Source of the DNA: Sabellastarte sp. h YS-2021 | Lineage: Eukaryota > Annelida > Polychaeta > Sabellida > Sabellidae | Length of the DNA: 64,000 bases | Assembly (NCBI GenBank): GCA_964017235.1 | Contig: OZ024933.1 | Location: 60,742,255-60,806,254 of the forward strand | Direction of reading: 5' to 3' | Shown: positions 22,150 through 61,190 of the stretch, piece by piece | Layout: each line of letters starts with the position of its first letter | How positions within the stretch are numbered: position 1 is the first letter of the stretch | Notes under the pieces: generated by a model | What the model was told of the DNA's origin: nothing | What the model saw: only the letters and a program-made list of their open reading frames with translations | The model's database searches: none | Translations under genes and position numbers: made by a program

Positions 22150-22598
22150 TCAGATTGTCAGAGAATCAAGTACAAATGTTCCTCAAGTTGAAAATATTGA
22201 GTTTAAAAATGTTGCCGGACATGGTAGTGAAAGATATTGTAACAATAGCAATTCTGTTGTTTCATGTGAAGGGCCTGGCAGAGTAGCCCATAATGCTTCT
22301 GCCTACAAAACAAGGTTGTTTTACAACGCAAATGTTAAACCAGGAGATATTGAAGCCATTTTGGCTAACAGAGGTAGAAAGAATAAAAAATTGGTGGACA
22401 AAAGGGTGGTGAAATCAATGATTTTTTAGAGGTGGCAACTCTGCTGGGTCAGACACGGTCTTGCAACAACAATGTAAAGAAAGTCAAAGTAATGATGTTA
22501 AAAATACCCACACTACGGATAGTAACCCTACCAAGTCAAATGGTGGGTCTGTTTGTGACAATTGGGGCAACAACCCTGAACATCACCCCATGCTTGGT

Positions 22599-22632
<34 letters not shown>

Positions 22633-22648
22633 CGAGAGTCAGTCAGAA
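22150..22648 (+). pseudogene. Broken linker ORF between gag and RT of element B
   Basis: A low-complexity stretch corresponds in position to the unknown 215-codon ORF of element A. It is read in several frames and interrupted by a 33-base G tract at 22600-22632. No domain is recognisable. Confidence 0.5.
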
Positions 22649-24528
22649 ATGGTGTCGTTTTGTGTTACTGAGAATGTTGCTTTCACACAACCCCCAGTAC
22701 TACCAAAAATCACACAAAAAATTGATTATGATTCAAATCACGTTGGCATTGAAGACAAGTTCATTAGTTCAATACTGAATGAAAGTACAAAGAAAGCCAA
22801 TACCCCCATGGAACATAATTCAGCCCTTTTCAGAAAGTGGCAAGCCCAGTCTGACTTCCCATTTGGCTACATTCCCATTGATGAACAGGTCATGCCCACT
22901 ACCAATGTAGTTAACCGCTCAAGTGGCTTCTCTCCTTTTAGTGCCCATGCTCTCGTAAAAGCCACTGGAAAACCTAATTACATGGAGGCTAGGCTCCCTG
23001 TCCCTTCTCAGCTAAATGTGGAGACTTGGAAGTCATTATTAACTGAATATTGGGATCAGCAGTTACTCCAGCTTTTGGAATTTGGCTTCCCCCTGGATTT
23101 CAACAGAAATTGTCCTCTAAGGTGTGACAACAAAAATCATAGTTCAGCTACTGAGTATCCAAATGATGTGGAAGCCTACATCAAAGAAGAATCTGATTAT
23201 CAAGCAATACTAGGCCCTTTTCCCAAAAATCCTATACCTGGGGGCCACTGCTCACCTTTTATGACCAGAAGTAAGCCAAATTCTGACAGGCGTCGAGTTA
23301 TCGTCGACTTGAGCTGGGAATGTATTTGGGAAGCCAATTTGACTTGAACTTCCCTTCAGTTGATCATATCACTGAGGAAGCCAAACGTATTGGCAGGGGT
23401 GCTTTGCTTTATAAAGTGGACGTCAGCCGTGCGTTCCATCACGTCAAGGTGGATCCCGCTGATTATGACCTTCTGGGCCTGCAATGGAACGGAACGTACA
23501 TGGATACGTGTCTTCCGTTCGAGACATGTCACGGAAGCCAGATTTTTCAACGTATAAGCAACGCAGTGCGTTACATGATGCGTCAGAAAGGCTTTTGCAT
23601 CATTGATTACATTGATGACTACGTTGGCGTGGGCGTCCCGAGCGTCGCGCATGCATCATATCACTTCCTCTTGAATTTAATGGAACGCCTAGGTCTATCT
23701 GTCAGCCAGAAGAAACTGGTTCCTCCAAGTACTCGTGCTACTTGTCTGGGAGTACTTATTGACACTGACGCAGGTACTATTTCTATACCTTCTGAAAAGC
23801 TAGCTCAAATAAATGAAACAGTTCAGCAATGGCTTACTAAGCGTTCTTGTACTAGGCATCAACTTTAATCCCTGCTTGGACTGCTGTTGTACATCCACAA
23901 ATGCATCAAGCCCGCTCGAGTTTTTCTGAATCGCATGCTTGAACTTCTCGGAAGTGCCCATGGTAGTAGTTTTATTACCCTCACGTCAGATTTTCGACGC
24001 GACCTTCAATGGTTTGCAAAATTCTTGCCATCTTACAATGGCGTCAACTATTATGACCATAGAAGTGTTGACCACGTCATTGAGCTGGATGCATGTCTCA
24101 CTGGCCTAGGTGGTTGTGTGGTGAGATTTGTGTATCATCTCCCCTTGGAAAAAGGCTACAAGAACTGTGGTATTGTCCAATTGGAAATGGTTAACATTCT
24201 CTTGGCCATGAGGCTTTTTTGGCGCCTTTGGTATACCAAAAAGATTTTGGTTAGGTGTGATAACTATGCTGTGGTTACTGTACCCAGATCTGGGAAAACC
24301 AGAGACCCTTTCCTGGCTGCCTGTGCTAGGAACATCTGGTATTGTGCTGCCACCCATGACATAGATGTCAGTTTTACCCATATCAGAGGCTCAGATAATA
24401 AGATAGCAGATTTGCTTTCAAGATGGAAAGGAAACACTCAGGATTGGGGTACTTTGTTACAGTGGGTCCCCCACCCTTGGTGGGTAAGTGTGAACGAGGA
24501 CATGTTGTCCTTCCATCCTGATTTATAG
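22649..24528 (+). pseudogene. Broken RT/RNase H of Ngaro element B
   Basis: The polymerase is collinear with that of element A. The first part runs through GFPLDFNRNC and RRRVIVDLSW to about 23320. A deletion of some tens of bases there removes the segment between VDLS and YLGSQFDLNF and changes frame. The catalytic region follows (YKVDVSRAFHHV, DYIDDYVG). A TAA at 23866-23868 stands where element A has a glutamine codon (CAA to TAA). RNase H follows, with IELDACLTGLGG and ADLLSRW, ending at TAG 24528. The copy is non-functional. Confidence 0.83.
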
Positions 24529-24768
24529 GTGTTGACTCTCCCTCCCCCTGTCCACCTATTGTTCATTCATGAATTTGCGTGTCATTTTGTATTCAAAGTG
24601 TATTTGTCATCAATTAACTTGTGTAGTAGTATGGTGCCCCTACAGGGCCAGTTGCAATAAAAATTTATTTTTGTCAGGTTTTTGTAATTGTTCATATTCC
24701 CAGTGCAGGGGCTGTCATGGTTATGGTTAAAAGCTTAAAAGATACTATACTTTGTTGTAGGCACACAG
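24484..24768 (+). other. Possible intron between RT and recombinase in element B
   Basis: A consensus donor TGG/GTAAGT occurs at 24484, 45 bases before the RT stop, in phase 0. The recombinase frame has no ATG upstream of its conserved part and is closed by a TAA just upstream. Acceptor-like sites TTTGTTGTAG (to 24760) and GCACACAG (to 24768) follow; the latter preserves phase. Element C has TCTCTTTTCAG directly before its recombinase coding sequence. This is inference from sequence; no transcript evidence is available. Confidence 0.4.
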
Positions 24769-25746
24769 AGATATAGTTCATTGGCTGGGAAGGCTTCCTC
24801 AAGGCTACATCAAGCCTTCAGGCCCAAGACAAGCAGAGCCTACTGTGCAATGTTCAAAGTGTTTGTGGCCTTCTGTGTCCTCATGGGAGTCTCCCTGCGT
24901 CATCTGTCTGTGGAGATTCTGCTGGCCTTCCTGGAGTGTCTGCTAGCTAATGATGTGTCAGTTGTAGTATTATGTAATTATTTGTCAGCAATAAAAGCTC
25001 AATGTATCATGTATGATTTGAAATATAATGTATGTGATAGTGTAAAAATAAAATATTTCATAAAATCTGCCAAGATATCCAGACCTCTGTGTCTGAAACC
25101 ACATAATGTCATGGATCTTGCTATGTTGCGAGCATTGATTATCAAAACAGCGAATCTCAAGCATTGTAGGGTCATGAAAGCCATAGTATTGACAGGCTTC
25201 TTTGGCTTCCTCCGACTTTCCAACCTGGCCCCTCATTCTAGAAGTTCATTTGACCCTTCCCATCATTTAACTGGTTCAGACGTATTTTTTACTCAGGATT
25301 ATGTCAAAATACTGCTAAAGTGGTCGAAAACATTGCAAACCAGGGACAAGGCCCATGTCATAACCCTTCCTAGATTGAAAGACAAACTTATTTGTCCTAG
25401 AACTGCATTGAAATCCTTATTTAGATGTTATCACATGTCATCTGCTACTTCCTTATTCCAAATTCACACTTCTTCAGGGTGGGTCCCCTTAGTTGACTCC
25501 ATAGTAAGGAAATCACTAACTGCCTTGAATGTGGCTCTGGGTTTGAACCCACACCATTTCACTTTTCACAGTTTACGTCGCTCAGGTGCGACCTTTGCCT
25601 TTAAAGCCCATGTCCCCATTCAGGATATCAAGAGACACGGGACCTGGAGCTCTGAATGTGTCTGGACCTATATCCAAAGTGACCATGCTTCTGGGGAGAA
25701 GCTGGCTAAGTCCCTAGCTTGTAATATTGATAATAAATGCCCATAA
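24769..25746 (+). CDS. Tyrosine recombinase of Ngaro element B
   Basis: This is an intact recombinase of about 325 codons. Counted from the TTG at 24781, the catalytic set is R145 (FLRLSNL), K in KWSKT near 183, H263 and R266 (HSLRRSG), H286 (RHGTW) and Y297 (WTYI). It would recombine the circular cDNA with target DNA. No ATG starts the frame, so it is probably joined to the polymerase by splicing or frameshifting; the nearest in-frame codons upstream of 24769 reach a TAA. It is about half identical by eye to the recombinase of element A. Confidence 0.83.
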   Translation, partial: RYSSLAGKASSRLHQAFRPKTSRAYCAMFKVFVAFCVLMGVSLRHLSVEILLAFLECLLANDVSVVVLCNYLSAIKAQCIMYDLKYNVCDSVKIKYFIKSAKISRPLCLKPHNVMDLAMLRALIIKTANLKHCRVMKAIVLTGFFGFLRLSNLAPHSRSSFDPSHHLTGSDVFFTQDYVKILLKWSKTLQTRDKAHVITLPRLKDKLICPRTALKSLFRCYHMSSATSLFQIHTSSGWVPLVDSIVRKSLTALNVALGLNPHHFTFHSLRRSGATFAFKAHVPIQDIKRHGTWSSECVWTYIQSDHASGEKLAKSLACNIDNKCP

Positions 25747-36932: not shown

Positions 36933-37105
36933 CGACCGCGCACACTTTGTCATTGTTACTGACTGTTTGGCTACTGAGAGACGTGTGTCACTGATTTGTA
37001 GGGGTTTTCAATTTTTATTTTACATTTTATATACTTGAGCTTAAGGCAAATTTCACAGTTAGGAGACACATTTTACTATTTTTTTATTATTTTGTCGACT
37101 GGATC

Positions 37106-38329
37106 ATGAGAAAAGAGAAAGGAGGGAAGAGAGGAAGGAAAAAGATGGATGAGAGGGAGAAGGAAAGTCAAGTAGAGGAGAGGAGTGAAGTTTTTACAGA
37201 AGAAGGAAGTGAGAGGAGAGAGGAGGAGGAGATTCAGGAAGATCCAGCTATTGGGGAAGCTGTGGCAGAAGAAGAAGAGAGGTGTGAGGAAGATCCGGAG
37301 TGCCATTCTTCAGCCAAGAGAGCCAGGGTGTGTGCCACTTTTACAGACAGTGATGAAGTTTCCATTGTAGAATTCGTCAAGCTGCACCCTGAACTGTATG
37401 ACAAGGAACATTCACGTTTCCACGACAGGAACAGAAGAGAGGCTCTCTGGGCAGAAATATCTGCAGAACTTAAGCTCCAGCCCTTTGATGTGAGAAGGTG
37501 GTTTGAGTCCCAGCGAACCCGTTATGGAAAGCTGTCTAAGCTCCAATCTGGCCAAGCCCCGAGGGAGATGACCAAGAGACAGTCCTGGGTCTACCAACAG
37601 ATGGGTTTTCTTAAAACCCACATCAGAAGAAAGGGGGCCAATAGAAGTTCAGGTTTTGAGGCCAGTCCAAATACCAGCAAGCAGGACGAATCACGTGGGT
37701 CAACTACTGACACAGAACACCTCGAGTCAAGTGTCCTGAGGGAGAGGAGTCAGTCCATCATTACATCAACACCCGTTTCAACTACAGACTCCAAGATTCT
37801 CGAACACTTTGAGCAGATGAGGACACTTATCTCAGGTTTTATGCATCAGAAGTCAGACAGGCAGCCTTTCTTTGACTACGTGGCATCAGAGGCCGAAAAG
37901 ATGACTCAAGAAGAATTTGAAGAATTAAAGGGCAAGATATTCAGAGATATCGAAAATATTAAGAGTAACCGCAGACGTCAGCCATTGCCCAGAAGATCAG
38001 CCACTGTTACCACGGAGTCCCAGAGGGTCGGCCTACTGCCAACAACCACTCCACAGGCGTCAAGTTCCACTCAAGCAGCAGCTAGCAGCAGTTTTGTGTA
38101 CTATACACCAAGCCCCATTGGCTTCAGCAACCCGACATCTGTCCTAACTGTACAGGACGAAGGGAGCAGACACAATCTGAGTGGAATCTTAAGCCAGCTA
38201 CCAGATCTGACATCAACACAGATCGTCAAGCAGCCTCAGCAGCAGCAGCAGCAGCAACAACCGCAGCAGCAGCTCTTTACTATCACCACTTCAGCACTGC
38301 CTCAACAGCAGCAGCAGCCTCCTCAGTAG
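37106..38329 (+). CDS. MADF-domain accessory protein of the Harbinger element
   Basis: The 407-residue protein begins with a highly charged region (residues 1-80, rich in Arg, Lys and Glu). A MADF DNA-binding domain follows at about 85-170 (IVEFVKLHPELYDKEHSRF, then LWAEISAEL, RRWFESQRTRYGKL, WVYQQMGFLK). A Ser/Thr-rich linker, a helical segment near 232-290, and a glutamine-rich tail (about 375-407) complete it. Harbinger elements encode a Myb/SANT- or MADF-type partner that helps the transposase reach the nucleus and DNA ends; this protein probably fills that role. A host MADF gene is unlikely because it lies between the TIRs. No disruptions are seen. Confidence 0.82.
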   Translation: MRKEKGGKRGRKKMDEREKESQVEERSEVFTEEGSERREEEEIQEDPAIGEAVAEEEERCEEDPECHSSAKRARVCATFTDSDEVSIVEFVKLHPELYDKEHSRFHDRNRREALWAEISAELKLQPFDVRRWFESQRTRYGKLSKLQSGQAPREMTKRQSWVYQQMGFLKTHIRRKGANRSSGFEASPNTSKQDESRGSTTDTEHLESSVLRERSQSIITSTPVSTTDSKILEHFEQMRTLISGFMHQKSDRQPFFDYVASEAEKMTQEEFEELKGKIFRDIENIKSNRRRQPLPRRSATVTTESQRVGLLPTTTPQASSSTQAAASSSFVYYTPSPIGFSNPTSVLTVQDEGSRHNLSGILSQLPDLTSTQIVKQPQQQQQQQQPQQQLFTITTSALPQQQQQPPQ

Positions 38330-39100
38330 CCATCCAGTCAGGGCGGGTCTTTGACCTGCCAGGCCCTTTTCAGGGCCACCAAATCATCCAAAAACAATTA
38401 TTCAGCTACGTGTTCTTCCAATTCCCCTCCCAAAACAAAAAAGTTCAGTACAAATACTTATCACAAGAAAAAAAAAATTAAAGTCCAACACTTACACCAC
38501 CCCAAACATGAAACAAATAACCCATGGTACTACACATAACAAAAAAGGCCACATAAAAAAAAAATTAAAAATAACTCCCAATATGGCCATTACTCAGCCC
38601 ATTTTTAGATTAAAATCCATGGGATAGTTTAAAATCTGTAATTGAAAAGTCCAACACTTACACCTTCCCTAGAGTTAAAAGGCATAATTACATACTTACC
38701 AACCCACAAACAGACAAACCCAATACCAAACATAACCCCCAAATAACAAACCCAGTACCAAACCTAATACCCAACTACCCCAAAAAACCCAACCCCAGTA
38801 ACCAACAAACACACAAACCCAAAAGTAAATAGAACCCATGCCAACGAACTGACAAAGTATTTAGCAAACACAATCCCCCATTATTGAAAGCAAAACTAGT
38901 TCCATGGTTATATTTTCCAAATTTTTGTGATTAGAAATGAATATTTAAAATTTAATATTTCCATAAAAAAATTTCTGCTACAAATAAGTTTCCCAGCCAT
39001 GAAAAAAGAAAAATGTTTAAATTAGGATGTGGATTTGAAAATATATAAAATAATAATTCAATTTAGGATATTATGTGTGACTTTGTGTTTGGCTTTTGTT
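38330..39100. other. Non-coding spacer between the convergent Harbinger genes
   Basis: This A- and C-rich sequence contains many short CAAACCCA/ACCCAAT-type repeats and no recognised gene. It includes the probable 3' UTR of the MADF gene. Confidence 0.5.
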
Positions 39101-39462: not shown

Positions 39463-40779
39463 CTATATTCTGCCATCTTGCCAGGCCACCGCTCCCTCAT
39501 TATTGAAGTAGTCCTTCAGGTAATCCCTCTGTCTTTTGGCCTCTCTAGCAGGGTTTCTGTCTTGGCCACCACCAGCAGCACCACCAATCAATCCACAATC
39601 ACCAGGCACATCATCATCATCATCATCATCCCCCCCAGGCTGCTGACCAGCAGGTTGACCTTGATACTGGCTTCTGAGTATATTGTGCAGAACCACACAG
39701 GTCATGACCACTTCTCTAACTGTTTCTGGGGGTAGTTCAATGGTGGTCCTCATGACTCTAAATCTTGACACAAGGATGCCAAAAGCGTTCTCCACAACTC
39801 TCCTGCCCCTTGATATTCTGTAGTTGGCAATCCTTTCCTCCCTTGTTAACAGCCTTCTGCCATAGGGTTTCATGAGCCAGGTCTTCAGGGCAAAGGCATC
39901 ATCTGCCAAAATGAAGTAGGGGACATCTGTACCACCCTGTGTTATAGGAGCTGGGTCAGGGAAGCCTATCCTGCCATCTTCAATCCTCCTCTTCAGCTGA
40001 GAGGCATTAAATATCTGGGCATCTGAGCAAGACCCTTCTGTACCCACATCCACCCATCTGAATTTGTACTGCCCATCTACCAAGGCCAACATGACAATGG
40101 AAAAGAACCCCTTGTAGTTGTGGTAGAGGGCTCCAGAGTTCTTTGGTTTCTTCAGGGCCACATGCTTTCCATCCAGGGCTCCCGGGGCATGTGGAACATT
40201 CCACCTGATCCTGAATTCCCTCTCCAGTTCTTTCCACTCATCTGGGGTAGTAGGACATTTGAGGTACTCTCTGGTGAACTCATCCTGGATGGCCCTGCAG
40301 ACCTCTGGTAGAAACTTGGAAATGGTGGATCTTCCAACCCTGAACTGACAGGATAATGATGTGTATGACTCTCCAGTGGCCAGATATCTGATGGTGAGGG
40401 CTAACTTCTCCCCAACACTGATAGGAGCTCTGTAGTTGGTGGCCTGCCTGGCTAGACGTGGTTCCAGTCTGGTCTTCATCATTTCAAAGAATTCTGGGGT
40501 CATCCTCATGTAGTTGGTGAATCCTGGAATATCTGTGGCATAAAGATCAGCCATAATGTTGTGGTAGGCCCCCCTCTCCTCTCTCTGCAGTAGCCATGGC
40601 CTGACCCACATGTTGTGCCTTCTTCTGGGTCTCTGTATGGGTGCTGGTGGTGCTGGTGGTGGTGGTGGTGGTTGCTGTGCTTGACGTAAAAAATGGAAAT
40701 ACATGATTATTTGTAAGTGAATAAAAACCAAAAAAGCCCTAAGTTGTTGTTGAATCTGTCTTCCATTAAAAGGTGGCAT
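39463..40779 (-). CDS. PIF/Harbinger DDE transposase
   Basis: The intact 438-residue protein cuts and joins element ends. A proline-rich N-terminus (residues 37-47) is followed by a helix-turn-helix-like region (GESYTSLSCQFRVGRSTISK at 136-155) and the DDE nuclease: D203 in GALDGKHV, D293 in LADDAFAL, E330 in RRVVENAFG. The block GSCSDAQIF, typical of the family, is at about 250-257. An acidic run of seven D (384-390) precedes a basic C-terminus. Length is normal for the family. The first 30 residues are unusually hydrophobic, so translation might start at a later Met such as M57. Confidence 0.92.
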   Translation of the reverse strand: MPPFNGRQIQQQLRAFLVFIHLQIIMYFHFLRQAQQPPPPPPAPPAPIQRPRRRHNMWVRPWLLQREERGAYHNIMADLYATDIPGFTNYMRMTPEFFEMMKTRLEPRLARQATNYRAPISVGEKLALTIRYLATGESYTSLSCQFRVGRSTISKFLPEVCRAIQDEFTREYLKCPTTPDEWKELEREFRIRWNVPHAPGALDGKHVALKKPKNSGALYHNYKGFFSIVMLALVDGQYKFRWVDVGTEGSCSDAQIFNASQLKRRIEDGRIGFPDPAPITQGGTDVPYFILADDAFALKTWLMKPYGRRLLTREERIANYRISRGRRVVENAFGILVSRFRVMRTTIELPPETVREVVMTCVVLHNILRSQYQGQPAGQQPGGDDDDDDDVPGDCGLIGGAAGGGQDRNPAREAKRQRDYLKDYFNNEGAVAWQDGRI

Positions 40780-40827
40780 CCTGGTGTGTTCCTAGAAAAG
40801 CAATGATGATTAGATCGCAAATTTTAT

Positions 40828-42162: not shown

Positions 42163-45100
42163 CTGAAAACAACCACAAAGTTATGATCAGTGTAAAGAGT
42201 CACACTAACTCATGGAATGATAACAGGATGCCATGACAAAGGTTTAAAATTATTATTTATTCATTTTACCTTTGCATGAACATACTAAATATTATTGGTT
42301 TCTTTTTAAATAACACAGGATTGTTGAAAAAGTAGAGTCAATACATAGTTGTTTTGTCAAATGATGAAGTAGTACCCGGAGAAAAGCATTGGGGCTGGGG
42401 GTGGGGGTGGCGGTGAGGGGGGTGTTTGAAACAACTGACCTTGCACATTTTTAAACTCCACAAGGGCACAGTCCTCATCACTGTGTATTGTAACAGTCTC
42501 CACTTTGCCCCCTCCTGACTTTCTGCTCTCAAAGTACAGACCCACTTTCTCTTTGCAGATGTTCTTGGGTTTACAGACACCATAAACCTGTAAGAATGTT
42601 ATAGCACTGTACTTATTATGTTAATGTGCATGAGTTACAGATGAACCTTGCATGTGTATCTTGCACATCTTTCATGAGTGTGCCTTAAATATGAGTGTGA
42701 CGGATTTTAACACTGAAGCAAGGATCGTGATTGATGGAAAAAACAGTTTTTCTCACTCTTAATTTTGTATTTTCAGTTTCATAGAAAACTGCTACTCATT
42801 CAAACTTCAAGTTACAGAATCATAATATTTACTTGTATACACTCAATCTTGAGATGATATGTCAAGAATGAGAACTTGTAAGCTATTTGCTAACAACTGC
42901 AGCATAAAGATTGATTAATTGATTGATTTACCGTCTCATTGTTCCTTTTATACTTTGATGGGAGTAAAGTTTAAGTGATTATCAAGCGTATGTGGGTCCA
43001 CATCTAGGTGTGGGCGAGTTCACTCCTCCAAACCCCATCCGAGTTTTAACAAGCCTTCTGTCCTACTTTCTTCTAAATTCATTGGTCACAGTTCAGTGCC
43101 CCTACAATCCTTCACCTAACTTGTCATTCAAACTTCACCTGCCAGTGGGGTCACATTGAAAATAGCAGACATCTTGCCTTCTTGTCAAAAACTGGACTGT
43201 GGTTTTATGAATTTATTTTATACTTTGTTTTTAATATGATCTTTTATATATTTTAGTTTCTTATTGTGTATTTGATATACCGTTAACACACATATGTTTG
43301 TATTATCAAAATTCTATATGTAATGATGTTCCGTTAGCGCACATAGAATATTTAGTGTTGGTTTTTCTATGTGTATTGATTTAACGTTAGTGCATATAGA
43401 AATATGATTTATTACATGTTATGAACTACCGTTAATGCATATAGGTAATTTACCTATTGCTTATATGTTGTTTCGTTAGTGCATATAGGAACTTTGGGAA
43501 ACTACTTCCGCGTTTTCTTCCAAAAGTGCTTGGATGCCATCCGCTACATTATGAAAAACCAAGGTTTTCCCACAAGGTTCAATTATATTGACGATTTGAT
43601 TTAGGTTGGGTTGCCTCACGAAATTGATCAGTCTTTCAAATTCCTCCAACATTTATTGCGAGATCTAGGCTTAGAAGTCAGTTCCAGTAAGCTGGTTTCT
43701 CCTACAACTCAAATAACTTGCTTAGGAATATTGGTGGACACAGTTGCACAAACAATCTCAATTCCTAGCGATAAACTTTGCCAGAAAAAAGGTATTTGCT
43801 CCTCTTGGTCCACCAAGACATACTGTAGCAAGCATGATTTACAGTCACTTCTAGGCTCTTTGCTCTACATTACTAAGTGCATTAAACTGGCCCGGTTCTT
43901 CTTAAACCGTATGTTGTCCTTGCTTAGACAGAATGTCGATCACCGAAAAATCCTCCTTACCCAAGCTTTTTTGCTGATCTCAATTGGCTCCTAACCTTTT
44001 TAGACACATATAATGGCACCACATATTATAAGGTCACGGAACAAGATGCCCAGGTCCACTTGGATGCCTCTCTTACAGGCCTTGGTGGCATATATGGCTC
44101 CCTAGTCTATGCACTGACCATACCAAGTGGTTACCGTGACTATAGTATCATCCACTTAGAGATATTGAGCATATTAGTGGCATGCAAAATCTGGGCGTCC
44201 CACTGGGAGAACAAAAAAATCCAAATATATCCGGCAGAACTGGAGGTGACACACTGGCTACCTGTGCAAGAAACATCTGGCTTCTCTCTGCATTGTATAA
44301 CACTCATTTCACATTTTCACACATTGCAGGTGTCCAAAATACTATTGCTGACCTGCTTTCCAGATGGGGGAATAGTCATAATGACTGGAATAAGCTCCAA
44401 CAACTCTGTCCTGATCATACTTGGGTTAATTCACATATTGACCTAACATTGCTGAATTATACTATTTAAATTTATTCTCTTTTCAGACTTACCTGCAGCG
44501 GCGGCCCAGCTGGCTTCTCTGGCTACTCGAAGCTTAAAGAATGGCTTCCGTCCTTCCACCTTCACACAGTATAGTAGGATGTGGCGGGATTTCCTTGCAT
44601 TCCAGGTGGCTGCTGGGTTGTCGTTGCATCAGGTGACTCCGCTGGTTTGACTAGCCTATATTCCAAATCTTATTAACGCCAGTCTGTCAGAATCCAATAT
44701 TTCAAATAACCTTGCCGCATTGCGAGCTTTCCACATAATGCATGGCCTCTCCATGGATGCCTTTCAAGATCGACGTATTCCTCTCCTCCTAAAGTCCATC
44801 ACAATTAATAGGCCCCTTGCTCCAAAAATTACTCAGGGCCTTCAATTGAACGATTGCATCAAGTCATTGCAATTTCCACTGGTCTCGAACACAATGTCAC
44901 ATTTACAGCATTGTACTCCTTCATCTTCTTTTCTTTTCATGCCTTTCCAATTTGTTGCCCCACACCAGCAAACAATATGATTATACCAGACAAATGGCAA
45001 GGGGGACGTCATTTTTTCACATTCTGGTGCCATTGTGATCATTAAGTGGTCAAAAACAATCCAGGATAGGAAACACACCCGTACCATTCAATATATGTCT

Positions 45101-48100
45101 AGGACACTCAGACATATGCCCTATTGTGCCTCTAAAAACCATGTTCTCGCATGTTCCAGGTTCCGATAATGATCCCTTGTTCATGATATTAAAAAAGGGT
45201 TCCCCTGTAGTATTGACCGATTCCATTGCTCGCAAACACCTGAAGAAAGTTTCCGGTGTGTTGGATAGACAACCACCACTGACATTTAATGCATTCCGCA
45301 GAGCCGCCTGCACATGGGCGTTTCAGCACGGGGTTCCATTGGATTTTAGCGTTCGCCAGGGGAGACGTGGTTTTTACATTTTCGTTTAAAATATTTTACT
45401 TTCTCCATAGAACTGGTCGGTATTTGATATATTTTACTGTAACTATATGTATTTTAGCAAATAATTGTAAACAAATAGATTACTGACTGTCACCATACCC
45501 AGATATCAGTTAACAGTGCTGTTTGTCATTAAACGGGTATTATCGCCCGCTCGATAATTCCCGCGGTAACACCTTCATTGTTTCCACACACAAAGCACAT
45601 CAAGTGTATTACATGTATGATTGTTGCACCTATTTCCAGTCTATTAACAGAATTGTGCAGGCTTTTTTCACTGTAACATTTGAAACATTTTACCGCACTT
45701 TTCTTGTTCCACAAAAATCGTGTGTATACCCAAAAACAATTCTATTTTAAGAATATATAACTTCTGTTTATATATTGGAACCAAAACATGCACAAGTCTG
45801 ATTTTAAAACCATTTAGACCGGAAAGTGGAATGGACCGGATTCTGGTTCATGAATGATAAAATAGATATATATCATAAAATATTGTGTACCAATTAATTA
45901 TCCCTGTCCACTGTTTGTTATATTCTAATCCCACACAACTATCTATCATATGCACTAATCTACTCCTTCCTAACCTACCATCTTTTGATTTTGGTACTGT
46001 GATGCTGTAATTAGAAAGGTTTGTACGTAGGAAAGGTAGGTGCACCTATTTCTAAATTTTAATTTTTGGCTTTCATTGGTCATGCATTGCACTTTTTGGT
46101 TCTGTTTTTCCATCCTCTTGACTGTTCGGTCAACAACCCCCACCAAGGAAAATAGTTTGCCATCACCAAAAATTATTCACCCAAGTTTACTCTCCTCTTT
46201 GGACAGTTGCAACATTGCTTTTGTCGCCCTGCAGGCCCACTGTCGTCAAGTGACGCACTGTTTCAGAAATGTCAACCCTTGGTGGTCCATCATCCTGATT
46301 CTTTCTGGCGACATTAGTTTGAACCCAGGTCCATCAGCCAGAAATATCAAAGCCTGTCATCTGAATGTCCGTTCATTGCGTAACAAAACATCAGCATTCA
46401 GTGATTTTGTTTTGTCAAATGATCTCGACATCGTTGGTGTCACTGAGACATGGCTAAGACCGTCGGACACACAAGACCTAATGGATGAGATAACCCCTGC
46501 AGGTTTCCAGCTTCACCAGGTCCCACGCGAGAACAAGAAAGGAGGTGGAGTTGCTGTCCTTGTTGGGAATGACATTGATAGCGTGCGTTGTCAAATTGAT
46601 CGGCGGAAATGTTTGAACACATTACCGTCAAACTGTCAGATCGACAGTCAAGCCAGCTCCTGGTACATGTAATTTACCGACCTCCAAGTACCAGCAAAAG
46701 CAGATTTATCGAGGAATTCAACAGGTTCATGGAAGCAGCTGCTTTGTCACCACATGAAAATATTATCCTGGGAGATGTCAATATCCAGCTTGACAGTCAA
46801 AATTGCTGGACAGAAAATTTCAACACAGTTCTATTGGATTTTGATTTTATTCAACATGTGTCAACACCTACACATATCCTTGATGTACTCTGCACTAGTA
46901 AATCCCTAACTTCCTCAGTTCACCATCATGTAAAGGACGGCATATCAGACCACCTAGCTGTCTTTTTACACTACAATCCCTGTCAAAAATTCCTGCAGAG
47001 TAAAACGGTTGAAAATCAGGAAACTTCGCAAGATAAATAAAACTGAATTCATGTCTGACATTGAAAATTCTGAGCTTATCCAGGCTCCTTACAAAACAGC
47101 TAGCTTACTTTCACACCAATACTTTCATACCCTTAGGAACATACTTGACAAGCATGCACCTGAACATGAATGTAAAACCCCACAACATGTCAACAAAGGG
47201 TTCATCAATAGTGAGATTTTGGCAGCAAAGAGACGTAAGCGCAAACTCGAAAGGGAGTGGCGAAAGGACAACTCTGCCATAAACCGCAGTAGGTATAGAG
47301 CCGCTGTGAACCATTTCAACCGTCTCGTGGAATGTGCAAAAACCAAACACTACAGTGATATGGTTAGGGAAAATGAGGATAACCCCAAGGCCTTGTGGAA
47401 TTCCATAAAGAAAGTCCTCCATAGATCACCAAAAATGGTACTTCCAGATTATACCACCATGAACAGTCTAGTCAACACTTTCGGCAGGTATTTTGCAGAC
47501 AAAATTGCTAAATTAAGATCTGGATTACTGTCTACTGATGCCGATCCCCCTGTCTCAGGTTCCTACAAAAACAAGTTTGTTTCTTTCCGGACCATGTCAG
47601 AGGAAGAAGTTCTTAAAATCATAAAGTTCACACCAAATAAATCATGTGACTTGGATCCCATCCCAACATCATTGGTCCTTCAATGTATCAGTGTGCTCCT
47701 GACTCCTATTACAAATATTGTGAACTACTCTCTACAGGAGGGCAGTTTCCCATCCTGCTTTAAGACTGCACATGTTACACCCTTGTTGAAAAAAGCTGGT
47801 CTTGACAAGAATATTCTCAAGAATTATCGACCAGTGTCCAACCTCAGCTACATCTCCAAACTCATAGAGAAAGCTGTGGCTAAGCAGATAAATGAGCATA
47901 TTGCTCACGAGGGTATATCTAACGAAAACCAGTCCGCATATAGAGCTTTTCACTCAACTGAAACGGCGTTGCTCAAAATACAAAATGACATTGCCACATC
48001 AATGGACAAGGGTGCAGCTGTTGGATTAGTCCTTTTGGACTTATCTGCAGCTTTCGATACAATAGACCACTCGATCCTATTAAACTGCCTTCAGCACTGG

Positions 48101-51100
48101 TATGGCATTGATGGGGTAGTGCTTAAGTGGGTCCAGTCATACCTCAACTCACGCAAGCAGCGCATCAAAATAGATGGACATCTTTCAGATGCTTTTCAAC
48201 TCCCTTGCGGGGTTCCCCAGGGCTCAGTTCTGGGGCCACTCCTTTTTACCCTATACACAACCCCTCTCAGTTCAGTCATATCTAAATTCAATGTCACCCA
48301 CCACTTATATGCAGATGACACACAAATTTACTTGGAACTCGACTCTAGGAACTTCGATTCCAGTATCACTGAATTAACAAATTGCCTTGAGGTGGTCCAG
48401 GCTTGGATGGGAAATAATAAGCTTAAATTAAATCCTGACAAGACAGAATTCATAGTGATTGGTGATGATCAAATTAGAAGTTCCCTGAAGTCATCTTTCC
48501 CAGTGAGTTTGCTTGGCAACACCATGGAACCAGCTGAATCGGTAAAAAACCTTGGTGTCATCCTGGATGCTGAAAATTCAATGCAAAGACACGTGGCTAA
48601 TCTATGTCGCATAAGTTACTACCATCTCCGGGAACTACGAAGGGTCCGCAGGTACTTAAATCATGAAACAGCTGTAAAGGTGGCAAATGCCTTGGTAAGC
48701 AGTCGTCTGGATTACTGTAATTCACTGCTTTACAACACAAAAAAGGCATATACTAGCAGACTACAGAGAGTTCAAAATGCCTTATGTCAGACGGTGTGCA
48801 AGCTAAATAAATACTGTCATGTTACACCCTTCCTGCACAAACTACACTGGCTCCCCATTCATTACCGTATACTGTTCAAATATAATTTCCTCATTTATAA
48901 AGCAATACATTTGAGTCAACCTCCATATCTCTCCGCTCTAATTAGGCGGAGTGATCTCACACGGGGCAATCGCCTATCAATTTCCTCATCTAAACCAAAT
49001 AAACGCTCAGGGCTACGCAGTTTCATAGCAGGGGCTCCTACAGAGTGGAACTAGCTTCCTCAAGCCATCAGAACCATAGAAAGCATTTCTGGTTTCAGGA
49101 AACAGTTGAAAACATACCTTTTTAGATTGGCTTATCCTCTACCATAGCCTATCTCCCCTACCTGACGCTAATATGGAAACGGACATCTTTCTGGAACTGG
49201 ACTATCCCTTTTTGCACATCAGCGCCTTAGAGGATGTTTACATCAAATTCGGCGCTATATAAGTGTTTCTTACTACTACTACATTCAGGCTCACGGCACA
49301 TGACAATCCAACGCGATCTGGTCATACCTCAGGGCGCTTCCTTCTTCTAACTCCCCTGTTGCTCAAACCTTTAGCAAACACCTTCATGTTTCAGTTTGGC
49401 CCTTGGGAGTCACAGATCATAGATTGTACCGCTTTTCATTAACTATGTACCCAAAAGTTGTGCTCTCTTGACATTTACTCCGTATCAAGGTCAGGTGGGC
49501 TCGTACAAGTTGTGCCTTTATTTTCCTTCAAAACTGGGGGATGTGTTCAGGGTCTCCCCCCTTTTAGTCAGGTCATCTTTTACATTGTACCTGTGTTTCT
49601 CATCTGAGGGTTTGACCTTTTTGACCTGCTACCTCAGATTGCTCTTATTTCTTGTTCGAGCTCCCCTCCCCCAGAGGTCAAAGGTTGATAAAGTACTCCA
49701 TTAATTGCATATCTGGCAATTATGCTGAAGTTTGAATCATTGCTTGTAATGATGCTTTAGCCTGGGTAATTGTAATTACTGCTTCGAACGAGTTAGACAT
49801 AGTAATTTGAATTTATAGTTTGAAGCTTCATTGTAGTTTAATTGTCTATTAATTGCATATCTGGAAATCATGTCGAAGCTTGAATTATTGCTTGTAATTA
49901 AAGCGTCACATTTACTAATTATAATTACAGCTTCAAACCAGTTAGACTAAGTAGCCTGAATTTATAGTTTGAAGCTTGATTGTAGCGTAATTGTTATTAT
50001 CGTGACGTATGTAGCTGAAGTTTGAATGCATACTCTATCATAACATTTATGTAACTATTTAGTCTATCATATTTTACATTTACCTCAGTTTTATAATTAT
50101 CGTTGTAATTGTGCTTGCTATATTGTAAAGATTAATAAAATTTTAAATCCCAATTGTCTATCTTTGGGTTTTGGGGGGAGTGAATATATTCATTTACACT
50201 GTAGCCCATTAGGAAAGAGAGATAAAGAATTTATGGTCAATTAAAGAGTCCACGTGTCTAATCTGTGTATTGTAAAAAGAAAAGAAGAAAATAACTTGAT
50301 TCTATAGCTGCTACAGTAGGTTAAATCAGAATGTCAAAACTATGTTAAAAACTAAGTAATGATCGATAAAAATAAAAAACAAAGCAAACAATGAAAACAT
50401 AAATTGATAATAAGTGGCCTTGGAGTTTGAAATTTGGCATATGATCAAAGACTGATGCATCTGTGTTGGTTCAACTCCCACATGTAGCAATGTCGAAAGT
50501 CTAATGTATAATTAATGTTAACCAATATTGGGGGAAATGGTTGTTTAAGGAAAGCCCCAAATTGCTTTTATGTACTTAAGTACTTTGGATAATATAATGA
50601 GAATTGACTTACTTCAATAATCCTTGACTGCTCCACCCTACTTGGTGTCACCATCTTACCCTCCAGAGGTTTCAAACAGAACTTTTCAAATAATTGCTCA
50701 AAATCTACAAACATGTCAATACATCAGAGGAAGACTTTGGTCACTAGTAGCACTGGGACAAGATTAAGTATTTATTTTTATTGGCTCATTAAAATATGAA
50801 ACTAAGCCATAAAAGAGTACATTTAGTTTGTGAAATTAGCCTTAAACAAACTACCTGGTGGATGGTGAAACTGAATCAAGGCACTGGACATATCATGACT
50901 GCAAACAATGTTGCACACATTCCGACCGCAGAAAGGTTCTAAAAACCTGTGTATGTCTTCTGATGTGATATCCGTTGGTAAACCCTGCAATATACACATG
51001 GATGGACTTTCATTTTATTCTGAACAATCTACAAATTAGTAATCGGTTTCTTATTTGGGTAATCATTTGGAAAAAATATGAATACATTATATAAAAAATG

Positions 51101-54770: not shown

Positions 54771-54780
54771 TAATTGTGAG
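54771..54780 (+). repeat. Left target-site duplication of the L1-type LINE
   Basis: TAATTGTGAG, repeated exactly at 60741-60750 after the A-rich tail. Confidence 0.88.
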
Positions 54781-55833
54781 TATATTGTTAATATGTTACC
54801 TCTGAATGACAAGGTTGTTACTCTGGAAAAGGAACATACACAAGTACAGAATAGGTTACTGAAAGCTGAACAGAAATGCAAGAGTCTAGAAGAAAAATTG
54901 ATATCTTTAGAAACATCATCTGGCAGAAACAATTTAAAGTTGCTGAATGTGAAAGACACAGATACTACAAGCTATGAGAGGGAAGACTGTGAGCAGATTT
55001 TTATAGACTTGTGTAATCAGCTTGGGATAAATATTGGTGAACAAGACATTGAAAGGATATATAGAGTTGGTCCTACTACAAATAAAGATCGCCCAATGAT
55101 TGTCAAGTTCAACCACTTCAAAGCTAGACAAAAAATTTTCCAACAGCGAGTAACATTCAGGACTGCAGGTGTCATTGTAGTTGAAGATTTTCCTGCTGAA
55201 GTTGTAAATAGACGAAGAAGGTTAATTCCTGCCCACAAAAATCCACAGAAGTTTAAAGCACGACTTCTCATTGATAAACTCCTACTCAACAACAAGCTGT
55301 ATTCTACAGACGACCTTGATGACATTCCTGAAGAGCTTAGACCATGCAACCTGAGCACTGTTCAAAATGGTCACATGGTGGCTTTCTTCACGTGTGACTC
55401 CAAGTTTTCAAATCACTTTCCATGCTTGTTTGAACATGATGGTCTTCAGTTTAGTTCAGTGGAACAGTTTTTAATGTTTCAAAAGGCTAAGCATTTTGGT
55501 GATGACAGCATAGCAAAGGAGATTATGAAAACCGATGATCCTGCTATAACGAAAGCCCTAGGGAGAAAGGTGAAGCATTTTAAGCTAGAAGATTGGAAAA
55601 AAGTGTGTGATGAATATATGCGTAATGGCATCTGAGCTAAATTTACACAGAATCCATCTCTTGCCTCTGCATTGAAGGATACACAGAAGAACATGCTCAT
55701 TGAAGCCAACCCAAAAGACACATATTGGGGCTGTGGTCTTTCACTCAGCGACAATAACATATGGACTCCTGCAAAATGGAAGGGCCTAAATATGTTGGGA
55801 AAGATGTTAACAGAGCTGAGGGACAGTTTGTAA
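54781..55833 (+). pseudogene. LINE ORF1: coiled coil, RRM, CTD and NADAR domain
   Basis: Counting from the ATG at 54793, residues 8-40 form a coiled coil, and 45-115 an L1-type RRM (NNLKLLNVKD, IERIYRVGP, RPMIVKFNHFKARQKI). Residues 120-185 match the L1 ORF1 C-terminal domain (GVIVVEDFPAEVVNRRRRL, LLIDKLLLNNKLY). From about residue 199 the same frame is a NADAR/YbiA domain: FSNHFPCLFEHDGLQFSSVE, QFLMFQKAKHFGD, LGRKVKHF and a conserved W. A TGA at codon 281 (55633-55635) interrupts it. The rest follows in the same frame (FTQNPSLASALKDT, LIEANPKDTYWGCG) to TAA at 55831. The TGA stands where YbiA has arginine and may be a CGA to TGA transition. L1 ORF1 proteins are RNA-binding chaperones; NADAR enzymes hydrolyse ADP-ribose-type N-glycosidic bonds. 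Confidence 0.87.
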
Positions 55834-56780
55834 TTTTCAACACAACTCTTTCCACACGTGCACATCAAAACAGAAGATGCTGAGTTTTATCTACTGGACA
55901 ATGGGACAGTCAAATAAATTCTTAAATGCAACCTCCTTAATAGCTGCATGAACTTCATTATTTTTGTCAAGTGACTTTATAAAGCTGAACTAATTAGATG
56001 ATTTTTGCACAGTGTCTTTATTAAGCAAGAAAGATTAAGTTCTTTTGATTAAAAGTGACCAAGTGTGTAGTAACAGTATCACATATGCCACAATAGTTAA
56101 TACTATTTAGTGATGAGGCTTTGTTTATCAAGTCCTGTATTTATCCAAAAGATAGAAATTTTCAGTTTTCCTACAATTATTAACTTGATAAAAAGAATGT
56201 TTAATGAAGGAGTGTGTGAATACATACTGGTAAATAATACTTATTAATAATAAAATGTTGTTTATTATGTTGTATTGTACATATATTGTACATATTGTAT
56301 ATATTTTGATTACTGGATTTTCAAAATACATCAACTTTTTGTAAATTACACTAAATCTTGTATAAATAGTTTCATCCAAGGTTGTAAATTTTTCTCCTAT
56401 AATAGTATTATTTAATTCAGTAGCATCATATTATAATGTTTATTTTTCTCTGAATTTATGATTAACTTACTTTAAATCCTCATAACTCCACAGTATTGAA
56501 TACACTTTCAGTTGGCGTATTTTTCCTGGCATATCATGCTGTTCTTATTTTGTTACTTTCTAACCTGTACATATTTGTTTGAAGACAATAGCATAGTCAT
56601 ATGTACATATAAACTTTCTATCCTTTGCAATGCAGGACACAAGTTTATAGATTGGGTGAGTTTACAAAATGCATATAGAATGAAACTAAAGACTCCTTTA
56701 AATGATATTTTCATTTATTATTTATTCGATATATCAGGCACAGTTGGGAATATGAGTTGGATTGCAGCTAACCTTAATTA
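55834..56780 (+). other. Spacer between LINE ORF1 and ORF2
   Basis: This AT-rich sequence has no recognisable domain. An 89-codon frame (56512-56781) ends with a TAATG overlap onto the ORF2 start codon, which could allow termination-reinitiation or be chance. Confidence 0.5.
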
Positions 56781-59700
56781 ATGGGAGATTCTTTGAACAT
56801 ATTTTGCTTGAATACTAGAGGTATAGGAGATATTAAAAAGCTGAAAGCAGTTTTTCTTTGGCTCCAAGAAAAAGGAACAGGCATTTTCATGTTACAAGAA
56901 ACACATTCAACTGTAAAAACTGAAACAGATTGGAAAAAACAATGGGATGGTCAAATTATGTTTTCTCATGGTTTATCAAATAGTAGGGGTGTGGCAATCC
57001 TCTTTTCCAAAAATATTATCACATCTATTTCCAACATTCAAAGAGACAGTAGTGGTAGATTTCTCTTAATAGATTGCAATATAGCCGATAAGAGGTTCAT
57101 TTTTGTTAACATTTATGCACCCACTGTTGACAAAAAAATGAGCAAACAGTATTCAGTGAATTCCTTATTAAGGAGCTTGAATGCTACACAGGTGAAAATC
57201 TTATAATTGGCGGTGATCTAAACATAGACTTGGATGTATTTAGCAAAAACCCTACCTTGAGCAAAAATTTAAATTATAACAAATCCTTGTCTCAGTTTAT
57301 GCATATGTTTGACGTTATAGACATATGGAGGCTAAAACATCCAGACATGCTATACTTGGAGAGAAAAAACTAGATATGGCTTTACTCCATCCAGGATTGA
57401 CTATTTTTTTATCTCTTGTCACTTGCAATATTTTACACAGCATGTTAATATTCTTCCAAGCATAAGGTCTGACCATAGCTTACTAAAATTAACGCTAAAG
57501 CTTGAAGAAGAAGAAAAAAGAGTCAGAGGTATTTGGAAACTAAATACTAGTTTGCTCCTAGATGACAATTATATATCTCATATGAAGTCCACAATTTTAA
57601 AAGCTATAGAAGACTCTAAGCATTTACAAAATTCCTTTCAAACATGGGATTATATAAAATGTATGATACGTACAGAGTCAATTACATACTCAATCAATAG
57701 AAGTAAAAGAGATAAAAACATGCTGAAACAATTATCTGATAGACTTTCTGTTTTGGAAGAAATAGTCAGCAGTACACCCACCACAGATGATGTTGATGAA
57801 TATGATTTAATTAAAAAACAAATCGAAGAAATATACAAAGAAAAAGCATTTGGTGCCATTATTAGGTCCAGATGTCAAATGTTGGAAGAATATGAAAGGC
57901 CTACTAAATACTTCTTGAATTTAGAAAAGACAAAACAGAATGTTAAGCATATTCGAACATTAGTGAATGATGGTCACAAAATTTCATGTTCAGATGAAAT
58001 ACTCGAACTTGAAAAAAAATATTTTGAAAGGCTTTACTCTGAATCTGATGTTAACTCTAACACAGATGTCTATTTAGATACATACCTAAATAACATAAAT
58101 ATACCCAAAATTTCTGAAGAAAGCCAACAAATTTGTGACAAAACTATTGACTTTGATGAAGTATGCAAAGCGGTTGATGCTTTAGCTAACAATAAATCAC
58201 CTGGTATGGATGGAATTCCTGTCGAATTCTATAAAAAATTTTGGAATCAAATTGGAGAATATGTATATGGCAGCTTCATCCAAGCATTTGATAAGGGTGA
58301 ACTCTCTGACAGCCAGCGTAAAGGAGTAATAAACCTTATTCCAAAAAAGGACAAAGACTTGACAAATCTGAAATCTTGGCGCCCACTCTCGATACTGAAT
58401 ACGGACTATAAAATAATAGCCAAAGTGCTTAGTAAGAGATTGAAAACTGGGTTAATGGACATAATAAATCCAGATCAAATAGGTTACATGCAAAACAGGT
58501 ATTGTGGAGAAAATGTCAATCTAATAGCCGATGTTATTGACTACTGTAAGTGTAAAAATGCTTCCTGTATTATTTTGCTAGCAGACGTTGAAAAAGCATT
58601 TGACACAGTTAAATGGAGTTTTATAAAAAAATTATTACACAAATATGGTTTTGGAAGCAATTTTCAAAGGTGGATTTCAGTCTTGTATAACCAAACAGAA
58701 AGTTGTGTCACTAACAATGGTTACTTATCCCCATACTTCAAACTTGGGAGAGGAATAAGACAGGGTTGTCCTGTCAGTGCATTATTGTTCTTATTAGTAG
58801 CAGAAGTAGTGGCAATTGTATTACGTGAAGCTAAAAATGTTAAAGGTTTATATGTTAAGCAAACTTGTATTAAATTGCTATTCTTAAAAGACACTATTTC
58901 AGTTAAATACGCCATTTGTATATTTGAAGAATTTTATAGATATGCGGGATTGAAATTAAACAAAAGTAAGACACTGGCCTTCATTATTGAAAATGATACA
59001 AAAATTAATCCAGATACTAGCATTGGCATAGTTTGGACTAAAAATCCATTTAAGACTTTAGGTATATGGTTTGCTACAAATTCTACTGAAACACAAGCTT
59101 TAAACATAACCGAAAAACTAAAAGTTATCCAAAATATTTTAAAGCTATGGCAGCCCAGATGTCTTACATTAATAGGCAAAATCACAGTTATAAAGTCCTT
59201 AATTATACCTCATATTTTGCAGTTAGCATCAGTTGTATCATTTAGTGACAAATTAATATCAAAGCTGGATAAGTTGCTCCAAAACTTTATTTGGAATAAT
59301 AGAAAACCACTTGTGTCTAAAAATACTTTAATACAATGGCCAGAATATGGTGGCTTAAAAATGGTGTCAGTGAAACATGTTGTTTTACCTGCAAAAATTA
59401 TGTGGTTTAAATGATTTGGTAATAGTATCCCTGCAAAATGGAAAGTACTCGCAGAAGAATTAATGGGAATGAAAAAGATAAATATTTTTAAACAACAAAG
59501 TATTCAGAATGTATAGCATCACATCAAGTCAAAATTTTATTATAATTTATTATTAATATGGTTTAACTTTCTCATTTCTAATATTACATCAGTACATGAT
59601 CTCTTAAAGGAGAAGTTATTTGATAATCCTCTAATCATGGTTGACAAAAAGCCCATAATGATAGAACATAAAGATTGGTTTCTTCTGGATTTTCCTTGGT

Positions 59701-60517
59701 ATCGGATATTTTAAATAAAGACTTAAAAACTTTTAAGACAAAACTATGTTTGCAACAAGAATATAAAATTAAAATATCTGATATGAAATATAACCAAATT
59801 GTTAGTGCTGTTACAGATAAATTGCATAAAGTATCCAAAATCAAAAGAAAAAGCTACAATTCACAAGGTGCAAATATTCCTATGCAATGTCTTGTAGATA
59901 TAAGTAAAATCAAAAACTGCCAAGTATATAAACATTACATTACTACAACATATTCAATTCCAATTAATCAAGATAAATGGACTGAGTATTAGCCATTCTT
60001 GGAAGCTATTGATTGGAAAAATATATATACATTACCTTCCAAAATAGTCTTAGATACTTACCTAATTTGTCTTTAATATAAGATTTTGCACAGGGTATTT
60101 GCTTGTAATTACAAATTGTTTGTATGGAAAATAAATGACTCGCCACAATGTTATATTTGTGAAGAAGTAGACAATTTAGAACACTATTTCTACTACTGTA
60201 CAAATACAAGGTTCTTTTGGAAACAAGTAGAAAACTGGATACAGTCAATCATCCCTGTCACTCTGCATCTCACCGTATTGGATGTCCTGTTCGGCATAGT
60301 AAATGCCGATCCAAAGTATTACTATTTACTCAATTATGTGATTCTGACTGCTAAATATTTTATATTCACAATTAAGAAACAAAATGAAGATTTGTTTATC
60401 TTGAAATTCTTACATATCTTGAAAATGAAGCTAGCTACCGACAAAAAAGTATTTAAGCAAAAAGGCAAAACGGAGGTTTTTGCTGAAAGATTTGGTTTGT
60501 TATATAAATTTATTTAA
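56781..60517 (+). pseudogene. LINE ORF2: endonuclease and reverse transcriptase, inactivated
   Basis: An AP endonuclease starts at the ATG (LNIFCLNTRGIGD, MLQETHS, GVAILFSKN, NIYAPT). Two frameshifts near 57150 and 57350 split it; between them is LIIGGDLNIDLD, and after them RIDYFFI and SDHSLLKL. RT spans about 58.1-59.2 kb: NNKSPGMDGIPVEFYKKFW, SWRPLSILNTDYKII, LADVEKAFDTVKWSFIKKLL, RGIRQGCPVSALLFLLVAE. The catalytic xADD box is absent: IKL runs straight into LFLKDTIS, an in-frame loss of about six codons. Stops follow from 59414. A cysteine-rich tail (CYICEEVDNLEHYFYYC) typical of L1/Tx1 ORF2 survives at 60.14-60.2 kb. Confidence 0.87.
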
Positions 60518-60740
60518 AATCTGGAAAATCAGTATTGAAAAGATATCCCACTCCCAAATGTGGTATGTGTTTTGTTTAACTTAATTGTTTAACTATTAAC
60601 ACTCTGTTCCAATAGATTGTCTTTTTAAAAAGTTTGTACAAGCAAATGTGCTTTAAACATTATATCATTCTGTATTGTATAACATAACAATGTATTGCTA
60701 CTGTCTTTTTTTTGTTTTAAAAATAAATAAAAAAAAAATG

Positions 60741-60750
60741 TAATTGTGAG
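60741..60750 (+). repeat. Right target-site duplication of the L1-type LINE
   Basis: TAATTGTGAG directly after the A-rich tail, identical to 54771-54780. Confidence 0.88.
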
Positions 60751-61190
60751 TCTTGGACTAAGTCCTTCTGTGAAACATGCCCAGGAGTGTATGGTCACCC
60801 TACACTACAGGTCTTTTTCAGAATATTTTATAAACATAAATGCAAGGAAAATACAGGAAAAAGTGTTTCCATGACAAATATTTGTTTTCACATATTGTTG
60901 AAAGTTAGTCACCTCCGATCTGTGCAGGGGCATCCATCCAAGCATTCATACAATTACAAGTCCTAGGCCCAGAAAAAATTAGTTGCCAATTCAAAAAAAA
61001 GGTAATCAGCTCCAGTTCCATTAGGGAAAAGAAACATATTTTACAGTGTGCACAGGTTTTGAATGCAAAGCACCCACGAAATTTTTAGTGAAAATTCAAT
61101 TAGTGTCGCAAAGGCAATAGTTATAACCAAATGTTGCCGATCAACATAATCACTAGTTTCCAAGGTAACCTGAACTCCCACAGACTGGGG
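60751..61190. other. AT-rich flank, no gene recognised
   Basis: The first 35 bases (TCTTGGACTAAGTCCTTCTG and on) look like the right end of the older element split by the LINE. Nothing else is recognisable. Confidence 0.4.

What the first reader, a model, noticed from the sequence alone, without database searches (positions are those of the whole stretch)
54781..55833. L1-type retrotransposon whose ORF1 protein carries a NADAR (YbiA/DUF1768) domain
Seen: in a single frame, a coiled coil, L1-type RRM and ORF1 C-terminal domain run into FSNHFPCLFEHDGLQFSSVE, the W-containing helix, NPSLASALKDT and DTYWGCG, i.e. a complete NADAR layout of about 148 residues with one TGA inside. Known: YbiA/NADAR enzymes cleave N-glycosidic bonds of ribosylated compounds, and bacterial NADARs reverse guanine ADP-ribosylation of DNA made by DarT-type toxins. 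Inference: a LINE whose RNA-binding protein carries such an enzyme might remove ADP-ribose marks from its own nucleic acid or RNP, for example those made by host PARPs. I am not aware of a described LINE with this fusion.
Basis: partly seen in the sequence, partly recalled or inferred. Interest (0 to 1): 0.88.

Follow-up and report, generated by a model that had tools for sequence, protein, structure and literature searches.

The report
Jumping gene carrying a sugar-stripping enzyme
A family of LINE "jumping genes" carries, as a fixed part of its RNA-binding protein, an enzyme domain that in bacteria strips ADP-ribose off nucleic acids; the combination was mentioned once in print for oysters, and here it proves to be widespread, intact and conserved.

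Summary
Window 54782-60740 is a 5'-truncated L1-superfamily LINE with an 11-bp target-site duplication. Its ORF1 reads coiled coil, L1-type RRM, CTD and a full NADAR domain (Pfam E 5.9e-42), broken by one TGA. The ORF1-NADAR unit is no chance fusion. Of 121 proteins held, 80 carry both parts. The two parts share one history (tree-distance r 0.905). The window's own 1.79-Gb genome holds many families with open ORF1-NADAR frames (79 of 99 scored matches without a stop), including 99%-identical copies with open ORF1 and ORF2. Active-site residues are nearly invariant, and NADAR dN/dS is 0.13-0.41 in all 14 usable pairs. AlphaFold2 on an intact relative matches human L1 ORF1p and an ADP-ribose-bound NADAR. 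The window copy itself is dead. The fusion is already in print in one passage: NADAR in ORF1 of several Crassostrea gigas Tx1 LINEs (PMC12477816). So it is a new member of a barely described kind. What is added is breadth, intactness, selection and structure. The likeliest role is removing guanine-linked ADP-ribose from the element's nucleic acid; this is untested.

The parts
54771..54781 (.). 5' target-site duplication TAATTGTGAGT
   Evidence: a shared 11-mer arose in 0 of 1967 random 40x40-base window pairs
54782..60740 (+). 5'-truncated L1/Tx1-type LINE insertion with A-rich 3' end
   Evidence: bounded by the duplication; ORF1 and ORF2 domains
54793..54942 (+). remaining part of the ORF1 coiled coil
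   Evidence: long helix 40-116 in the model of relative P0005; aligned in A1
54943..55350 (+). L1-type RRM and ORF1 C-terminal domain
   Evidence: core profile residues 51-186 of the ORF; human L1 ORF1p matches of the family profile and of the model of a relative
55399..55830 (+). NADAR (YbiA/DUF1768) domain
   Evidence: PF08719 E 5.9e-42; TIGR02464 132 bits over cut-off 73.7
55462..55485 (+). active-site E (55462-55464) and K (55483-55485), equivalent to E43 and (by spacing) K50 of P. nicotianae NADAR
   Evidence: codons read; equivalence by the alignment and residue numbers in PMC11543638
55633..55635 (+). in-frame TGA that breaks NADAR in this copy
   Evidence: P0002, 94% identical over the part it covers, is open across this place
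55702..55728 (+). active-site E (55702-55704), D (55717-55719), W (55726-55728), equivalent to E125, D130, W133
55831..55833 (+). ORF1 stop TAA
56778..57206 (+). ORF2 endonuclease fragment
   Evidence: PF03372 E 9.7e-4, below the family cut-off; tblastn with the open ORF2 of L020
57336..59414 (+). ORF2 reverse transcriptase, catalytic DD box not readable
   Evidence: RVT_1 E 2.7e-27; L1 ORF2p E 2.4e-73
60077..60517 (+). ORF2 C-terminal zf-RVT fragment
   Evidence: PF13966 E 4e-5, below the family cut-off
60741..60751 (.). 3' target-site duplication TAATTGTGAGT

Best explanation
A dead, 5'-truncated copy of an L1-superfamily (Tx1-type) LINE whose ORF1 protein ends in a YbiA-type NADAR domain. 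Shown: the fusion is a standing, co-inherited part of this ORF1 type; the insertions carry the marks of target-primed reverse transcription (target-site duplications, A-rich or poly-A tails, 5' truncation); and selection keeps the NADAR domain and its active site. Inferred: ORF1p trimers coat the LINE RNA and present NADAR, which hydrolyses N-glycosidic ADP-ribose, most likely on guanine, from the LINE RNA, its cDNA or the target-site DNA. That would cancel ADP-ribosylation laid down by a host transferase as defence or damage response.
Against: No activity or substrate is tested. The only curated equivalog over its cut-off is the riboflavin-intermediate N-glycosidase, so a small-molecule role is open. 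A search for Scabin-like (pierisin-type) guanine transferases in the own genome found none, but no control rang either. In several close pairs NADAR is less constrained than the ORF1 core (for example 0.34 against 0.10 for L035/L095). K is replaced by A in 3 of 47.
Confidence: 0.5

Rival explanations
1. NADAR is a structural or RNA/nucleotide-binding module: its fold binds ADP-ribose-like or RNA ends and helps assemble the RNP, with catalysis unimportant.
For: The nematode trans-splicing protein SNA-3 has three NADAR domains and works in an RNP setting (as stated in a passage of PMC11125620; of its own paper, PMC9303266, I saw only the listing and abstract start). K is lost in 3 of 47 copies.
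Against: Both catalytic glutamates, D and W are conserved in 46-47 of 47 own-genome ORF1s; E300, K307 and D313 are invariant over 42 diverse ORF1s.
Confidence: 0.2
2. NADAR acts on small molecules (free ADP-ribose derivatives, NAD-derived signals or riboflavin-type intermediates) rather than on nucleic acid.
For: TIGR02464 riboflavin-intermediate N-glycosidase 132 bits over its cut-off 73.7; a small-molecule role is argued for phage NADARs in passages of PMC9503650.
Against: Fusion to an RNA-binding trimer places the enzyme on nucleic acid (inference); eukaryotic NADAR 8bau works on guanine-ADP-ribose (PMC11543638); PMC9503650 itself favours macromolecular targets for NADARs of eukaryotic RNA viruses.
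Confidence: 0.2
3. Chance fusion of a degenerate LINE with a host NADAR gene fragment.
For: The window copy has a stop inside NADAR.
Against: The same fusion is present in dozens of open frames and many families, co-inherited, and the duplication encloses it.
Confidence: 0.01

Closest known systems
Tx1 LINEs of Crassostrea gigas with ORF1 NADAR (noted in PMC12477816, Genome Biol 2025)
   Same: LINE ORF1 protein with a YbiA-family NADAR domain
   Different: Only a short observation from Repbase there (passages read); no Repbase sequence could be compared here, so Tx1 membership rests on that paper and on the L1-like RT
[quoted passage not shown]
   Same: Retrotransposon carrying NADAR
   Different: LTR element, Pol not ORF1; outside Ectocarpus its blastp hits were almost all bacterial by the paper
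Human L1 ORF1p (2yko, 2ldy)
   Different: The human match ends with the CTD (chain residue 323); the family's NADAR lies beyond it
Phytophthora nicotianae NADAR 8bau and E. coli YbiA 2b3w
   Same: NADAR fold and active-site residues
   Different: No ORF1 part (chains of 189 and 168 residues)
DarT1-NADAR and YarT-YbiA toxin-antitoxin pairs
   Same: Enzyme family that erases guanine-ADP-ribose (PMC11543638, PMC11125620)
   Different: No ADP-ribosyltransferase family was found in the ORF1 and ORF2 proteins scanned; smaller frames were not scanned

Membership tests
L1-superfamily LINE (L1/Tx1) | ORF2 with endonuclease and L1-like reverse transcriptase | tested here: met
   RT to human L1 ORF2p E 2.4e-73 against R2 1.1e-17; open relatives L020 and L022 have EN, RT and zf-RVT over cut-off; degenerate in the window
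L1-superfamily LINE (L1/Tx1) | ORF1 with coiled coil, RRM and CTD | tested here: met
   profile and fold matches to L1 ORF1p
L1-superfamily LINE (L1/Tx1) | target-site duplication, A-rich tail, 5' truncation | tested here: met
   window duplication 11 bp; of 3 full-length copies checked, L015/L023 has 15 bp with poly-A, L012 gave 9 bp and L014 none of 6 bp or more
Tx1 clade in particular | RT phylogeny with named Tx1 references | not testable with these tools
   no Repbase reference set; the clade name is from PMC12477816 only
NADAR (PF08719) | complete domain over the curated cut-off | tested here: met
   144.1 bits against 35.1, with X at the stop
NADAR, YbiA subfamily | glutamate at the E125 position (D in BC4488, H in phage gp30.3 by PMC11543638 and PMC11125620) | tested here: met
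   E at 55702-55704; 46 of 47 own-genome ORF1s
NADAR guanine-ADP-ribose hydrolase | hydrolysis of guanine-linked ADP-ribose | not testable with these tools
   needs an enzyme assay
DarT1-NADAR toxin-antitoxin | adjacent ADP-ribosyltransferase | tested here: inconclusive
   no transferase family in the ORF1 and ORF2 proteins scanned; between ORF1 and ORF2 of L020 no other frame of 200 aa or more in the element's sense, but shorter and antisense frames were not scanned

The most novel reading that the evidence does not exclude
A whole, old lineage of animal LINEs carries an ADP-ribose eraser as a fixed part of ORF1p, kept active by selection, because hosts mark LINE RNA, cDNA or target DNA with guanine-linked ADP-ribose. 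This would be a writer/eraser conflict between an animal and its own retrotransposons, parallel to DarT-NADAR in bacteria.
Probability: 0.35. Interest if true: 0.85.

Novelty: new member of a known kind. Interest (0 to 1): 0.55.

Why it matters
[quoted passage not shown] A retrotransposon that has kept the eraser's active site over much divergence points to a real substrate in the retrotransposition cycle and gives a natural test bed. It also means that NADAR copies in animal genomes may often be mobile-element genes, which matters for annotation.

Tried and rejected
Chance fusion to a host gene fragment: rejected. Relatives in viral contigs: none for P0005 or alignment A3; none in bacterial and archaeal genome contigs for A3. 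The stand-alone P0084 query hit 11 loci in viral contigs. Neighbours of three of them (L001, L005, L009) were scanned: 6 of 9 proteins matched a PHROG, so these look like phages. They fall near LINE NADARs with weak support. LINE NADARs as one clade are not rejected (AU p 0.577; 79 rows, 17 of the 96 dropped). In the first tree five rows labelled 'no core' (P0061, P0069, P0071, P0074, P0080) are by my reading truncated LINE frames (weak core hits at 0.002-0.005), so its count of 5 changes is too high, without them, needs 2. First dN/dS pass: 2 usable of 1081 pairs, hence the larger set, whose pooled value over four non-overlapping pairs is 0.419 for NADAR and 0.242 for the core. The binomial test (25 synonymous of 51 changes, p 7.8e-6) used three pairs that I picked by hand from the 14. 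L107-L112, fetched later, are not in any dN/dS count, and L026 was left out of them. PF22596 Scabin-like (accession recalled, name confirmed by the output) gave 0 matches with no control ringing: inconclusive. PF02994 Transposase_22 likewise gave 0 with no control ringing. A search of the own genome for NADAR-less ORF1s did not complete, nor were DNA searches for more copies of two other families.

Full report
What is there. Window 54782-60740 (+) is an insertion flanked by an exact 11-base direct repeat, TAATTGTGAGT at 54771-54781 and 60741-60751; none of 1967 random 40x40-base window pairs shared an 11-mer. It ends in an A-rich stretch. It starts inside the coiled coil of ORF1: relative P0003, 89% identical over the 59% of the query it covers, has 35 more residues upstream. 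ORF1 runs from ATG 54793 to TAA 55831-55833 with one TGA at 55633-55635. ORF2 follows about 0.95 kb later as endonuclease, RT and zf-RVT pieces in different frames. The RT resembles human L1 ORF2p (2.4e-73) much more than R2 (1.1e-17), but shows no [FY]xDD box. So this copy is a dead, 5'-truncated L1-superfamily LINE.

Not a chance fusion. Of 121 proteins held after two searches, 80 match both the RRM-CTD core and NADAR, 25 NADAR only, 16 core only; several core-only rows end before NADAR could follow (for example P0003, P0011), while others, such as P0013 and P0109, look like ORF1s without it. A third search with the core alone (residues 60-262 of P0005) returned 21 rows, the query included. 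Nineteen of the other 20 have Pfam NADAR precomputed, and the twentieth, P0039, ends inside NADAR. For the 54 rows with both parts complete, NADAR and core tree distances correlate at 0.905 (0 of 2000 permutations as high), 17 of 51 splits are shared (0.15 expected by shuffling), and splits of support 95 or more (8 and 10) never conflict. LINE NADARs as a single clade are not rejected.

In the window's own genome (1.786 Gb, 647 contigs). P0005 finds 99 scored matches among 3092 candidates; 79 of the 99 have no stop in the matched stretch, and many are full-length frames of 420-460 aa on many contigs. One family has copies 99% identical over about 7 kb, with ORF1 of about 423 aa and ORF2 of 1266 aa open in L020, L022 and L025 (1235 aa in L023). 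Of the other three stretches read, L021 has only ORF1 open, L024 has ORF1 open and an ORF2 frame that runs off the stretch, and L026 has neither whole. The full-length 5' end lies 593 bases before the start of ORF1 and is shared by L012 and four other copies. L015/L023 has a 15-base duplication and poly-A, L012 a 9-base one, and L014 none of 6 or more. The flanks seen differ, so no target sequence is apparent. The window's own family is small and old: by DNA, besides itself, five places of more than 250 bases at 85-97% identity (counts there are lower bounds).

Selection. In 47 own-genome ORF1s (53 complete frames less 6 that were the same places; mostly chosen as stop-free, so biased towards intact copies) the residues equivalent to E43, K50, E125, D130 and W133 of P. 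nicotianae NADAR are kept in 47, 44, 46, 47 and 47. Numbering follows PMC11543638 (passages) and the alignment; that K50 pairs with K95 of the E. coli C7 enzyme is my inference from spacing. Over 42 diverse ORF1s, E300, K307 and D313 are among seven invariant columns. NADAR dN/dS is 0.13-0.41 in all 14 usable of 1830 pairs (61 of 67 loci had a complete open NADAR); core 0.08-0.40 in 18 usable of 1891. Among saturated pairs median pN is 0.34 for NADAR and 0.37 for the core. In several close pairs NADAR is the less constrained part. Three hand-picked non-overlapping pairs reject neutrality (p 7.8e-6).

What it probably does. NADARs, including the eukaryotic 8bau, hydrolyse guanine-linked ADP-ribose, and a YbiA-type NADAR is the antitoxin of a transferase (PMC11543638 and PMC11125620, passages). 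Placing such an enzyme on an RNA-binding trimer suggests that it cleans the LINE RNA, cDNA or target DNA; this is inference. A clam guanine transferase, CARP-1, is cited in PMC11543638, but the host here is unnamed, and a Scabin-like search found nothing with no control ringing. That the host is a bivalve is my inference from the literature and recall, not a result.

Novelty. PMC12477816 (passages) reports NADAR in the Pol of Ectocarpus Gypsy elements and, from Repbase, in ORF1 of several Tx1 LINEs of Crassostrea gigas, with the suggestion that it processes RNA intermediates. Searches for NADAR with LINE and retrotransposon, 'NADAR domain', YbiA with retrotransposon, DUF1768 with retrotransposon, and Tx1 with LINE, ORF1 and Crassostrea listed no fuller description by title or abstract start; the first listing showed 20 of 100 papers. 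A bivalve transposon survey, PMC10294476, does not hold the words NADAR, YbiA or DUF1768 in its main text. The library lacks most subscription papers.

Noticed in passing
L113:1444-1947 (+) and L114; own genome: A second repeated NADAR carrier: the 38 best of 150 scored Pfam NADAR matches of the own genome lie in stand-alone frames of 167-179 aa (35 of 38 without a stop). L113 and L114 are 99.3% identical over 3.2 kb on different contigs, with a 166-base tandem array beside the gene; no other open frame longer than 121 aa in L113 or 101 aa in 4.1 kb upstream. Element class unknown.
   Followed up: partly
window 38357-38402 (+): Histone 3' UTR stem-loop (Rfam RF00032, 35.1 bits against cut-off 34) 27 bases after the stop of a MADF/Myb-like ORF 36995-38329, near a DDE_Tnp_4 Harbinger-like transposase ORF 39463-40791 (-). 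A histone-type mRNA end on a transposon-like gene would be odd.
   Followed up: partly
window 46040-49054 (+): Another LINE (endonuclease and RT) whose frame carries GDISLNPGP, resembling a 2A-type skipping peptide (motif recalled); the NADAR-less ORF1 protein P0013 has GDVEENPGP near its start.
   Followed up: no
window 9468-13944 (-), 21005-25746 (+), 43605-44446 (+): Look-alike sets of frames. RT matched at 10466-12247 and 23287-23865, and a tyrosine recombinase weakly, under its cut-off, at 24739-25743; the rest was not scanned. Probably DIRS/Ngaro-type retroelements (name recalled).
   Followed up: no
L012:1118-1406: The 5' UTR of the full-length LINE family holds repeats about 142 bases apart (cross matches at 90-92% between copies).
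   Followed up: no
L001:5972-6670 (+): In a phage-like viral contig a Sir2 protein lies about 0.5 kb from a NADAR gene.
   Followed up: no
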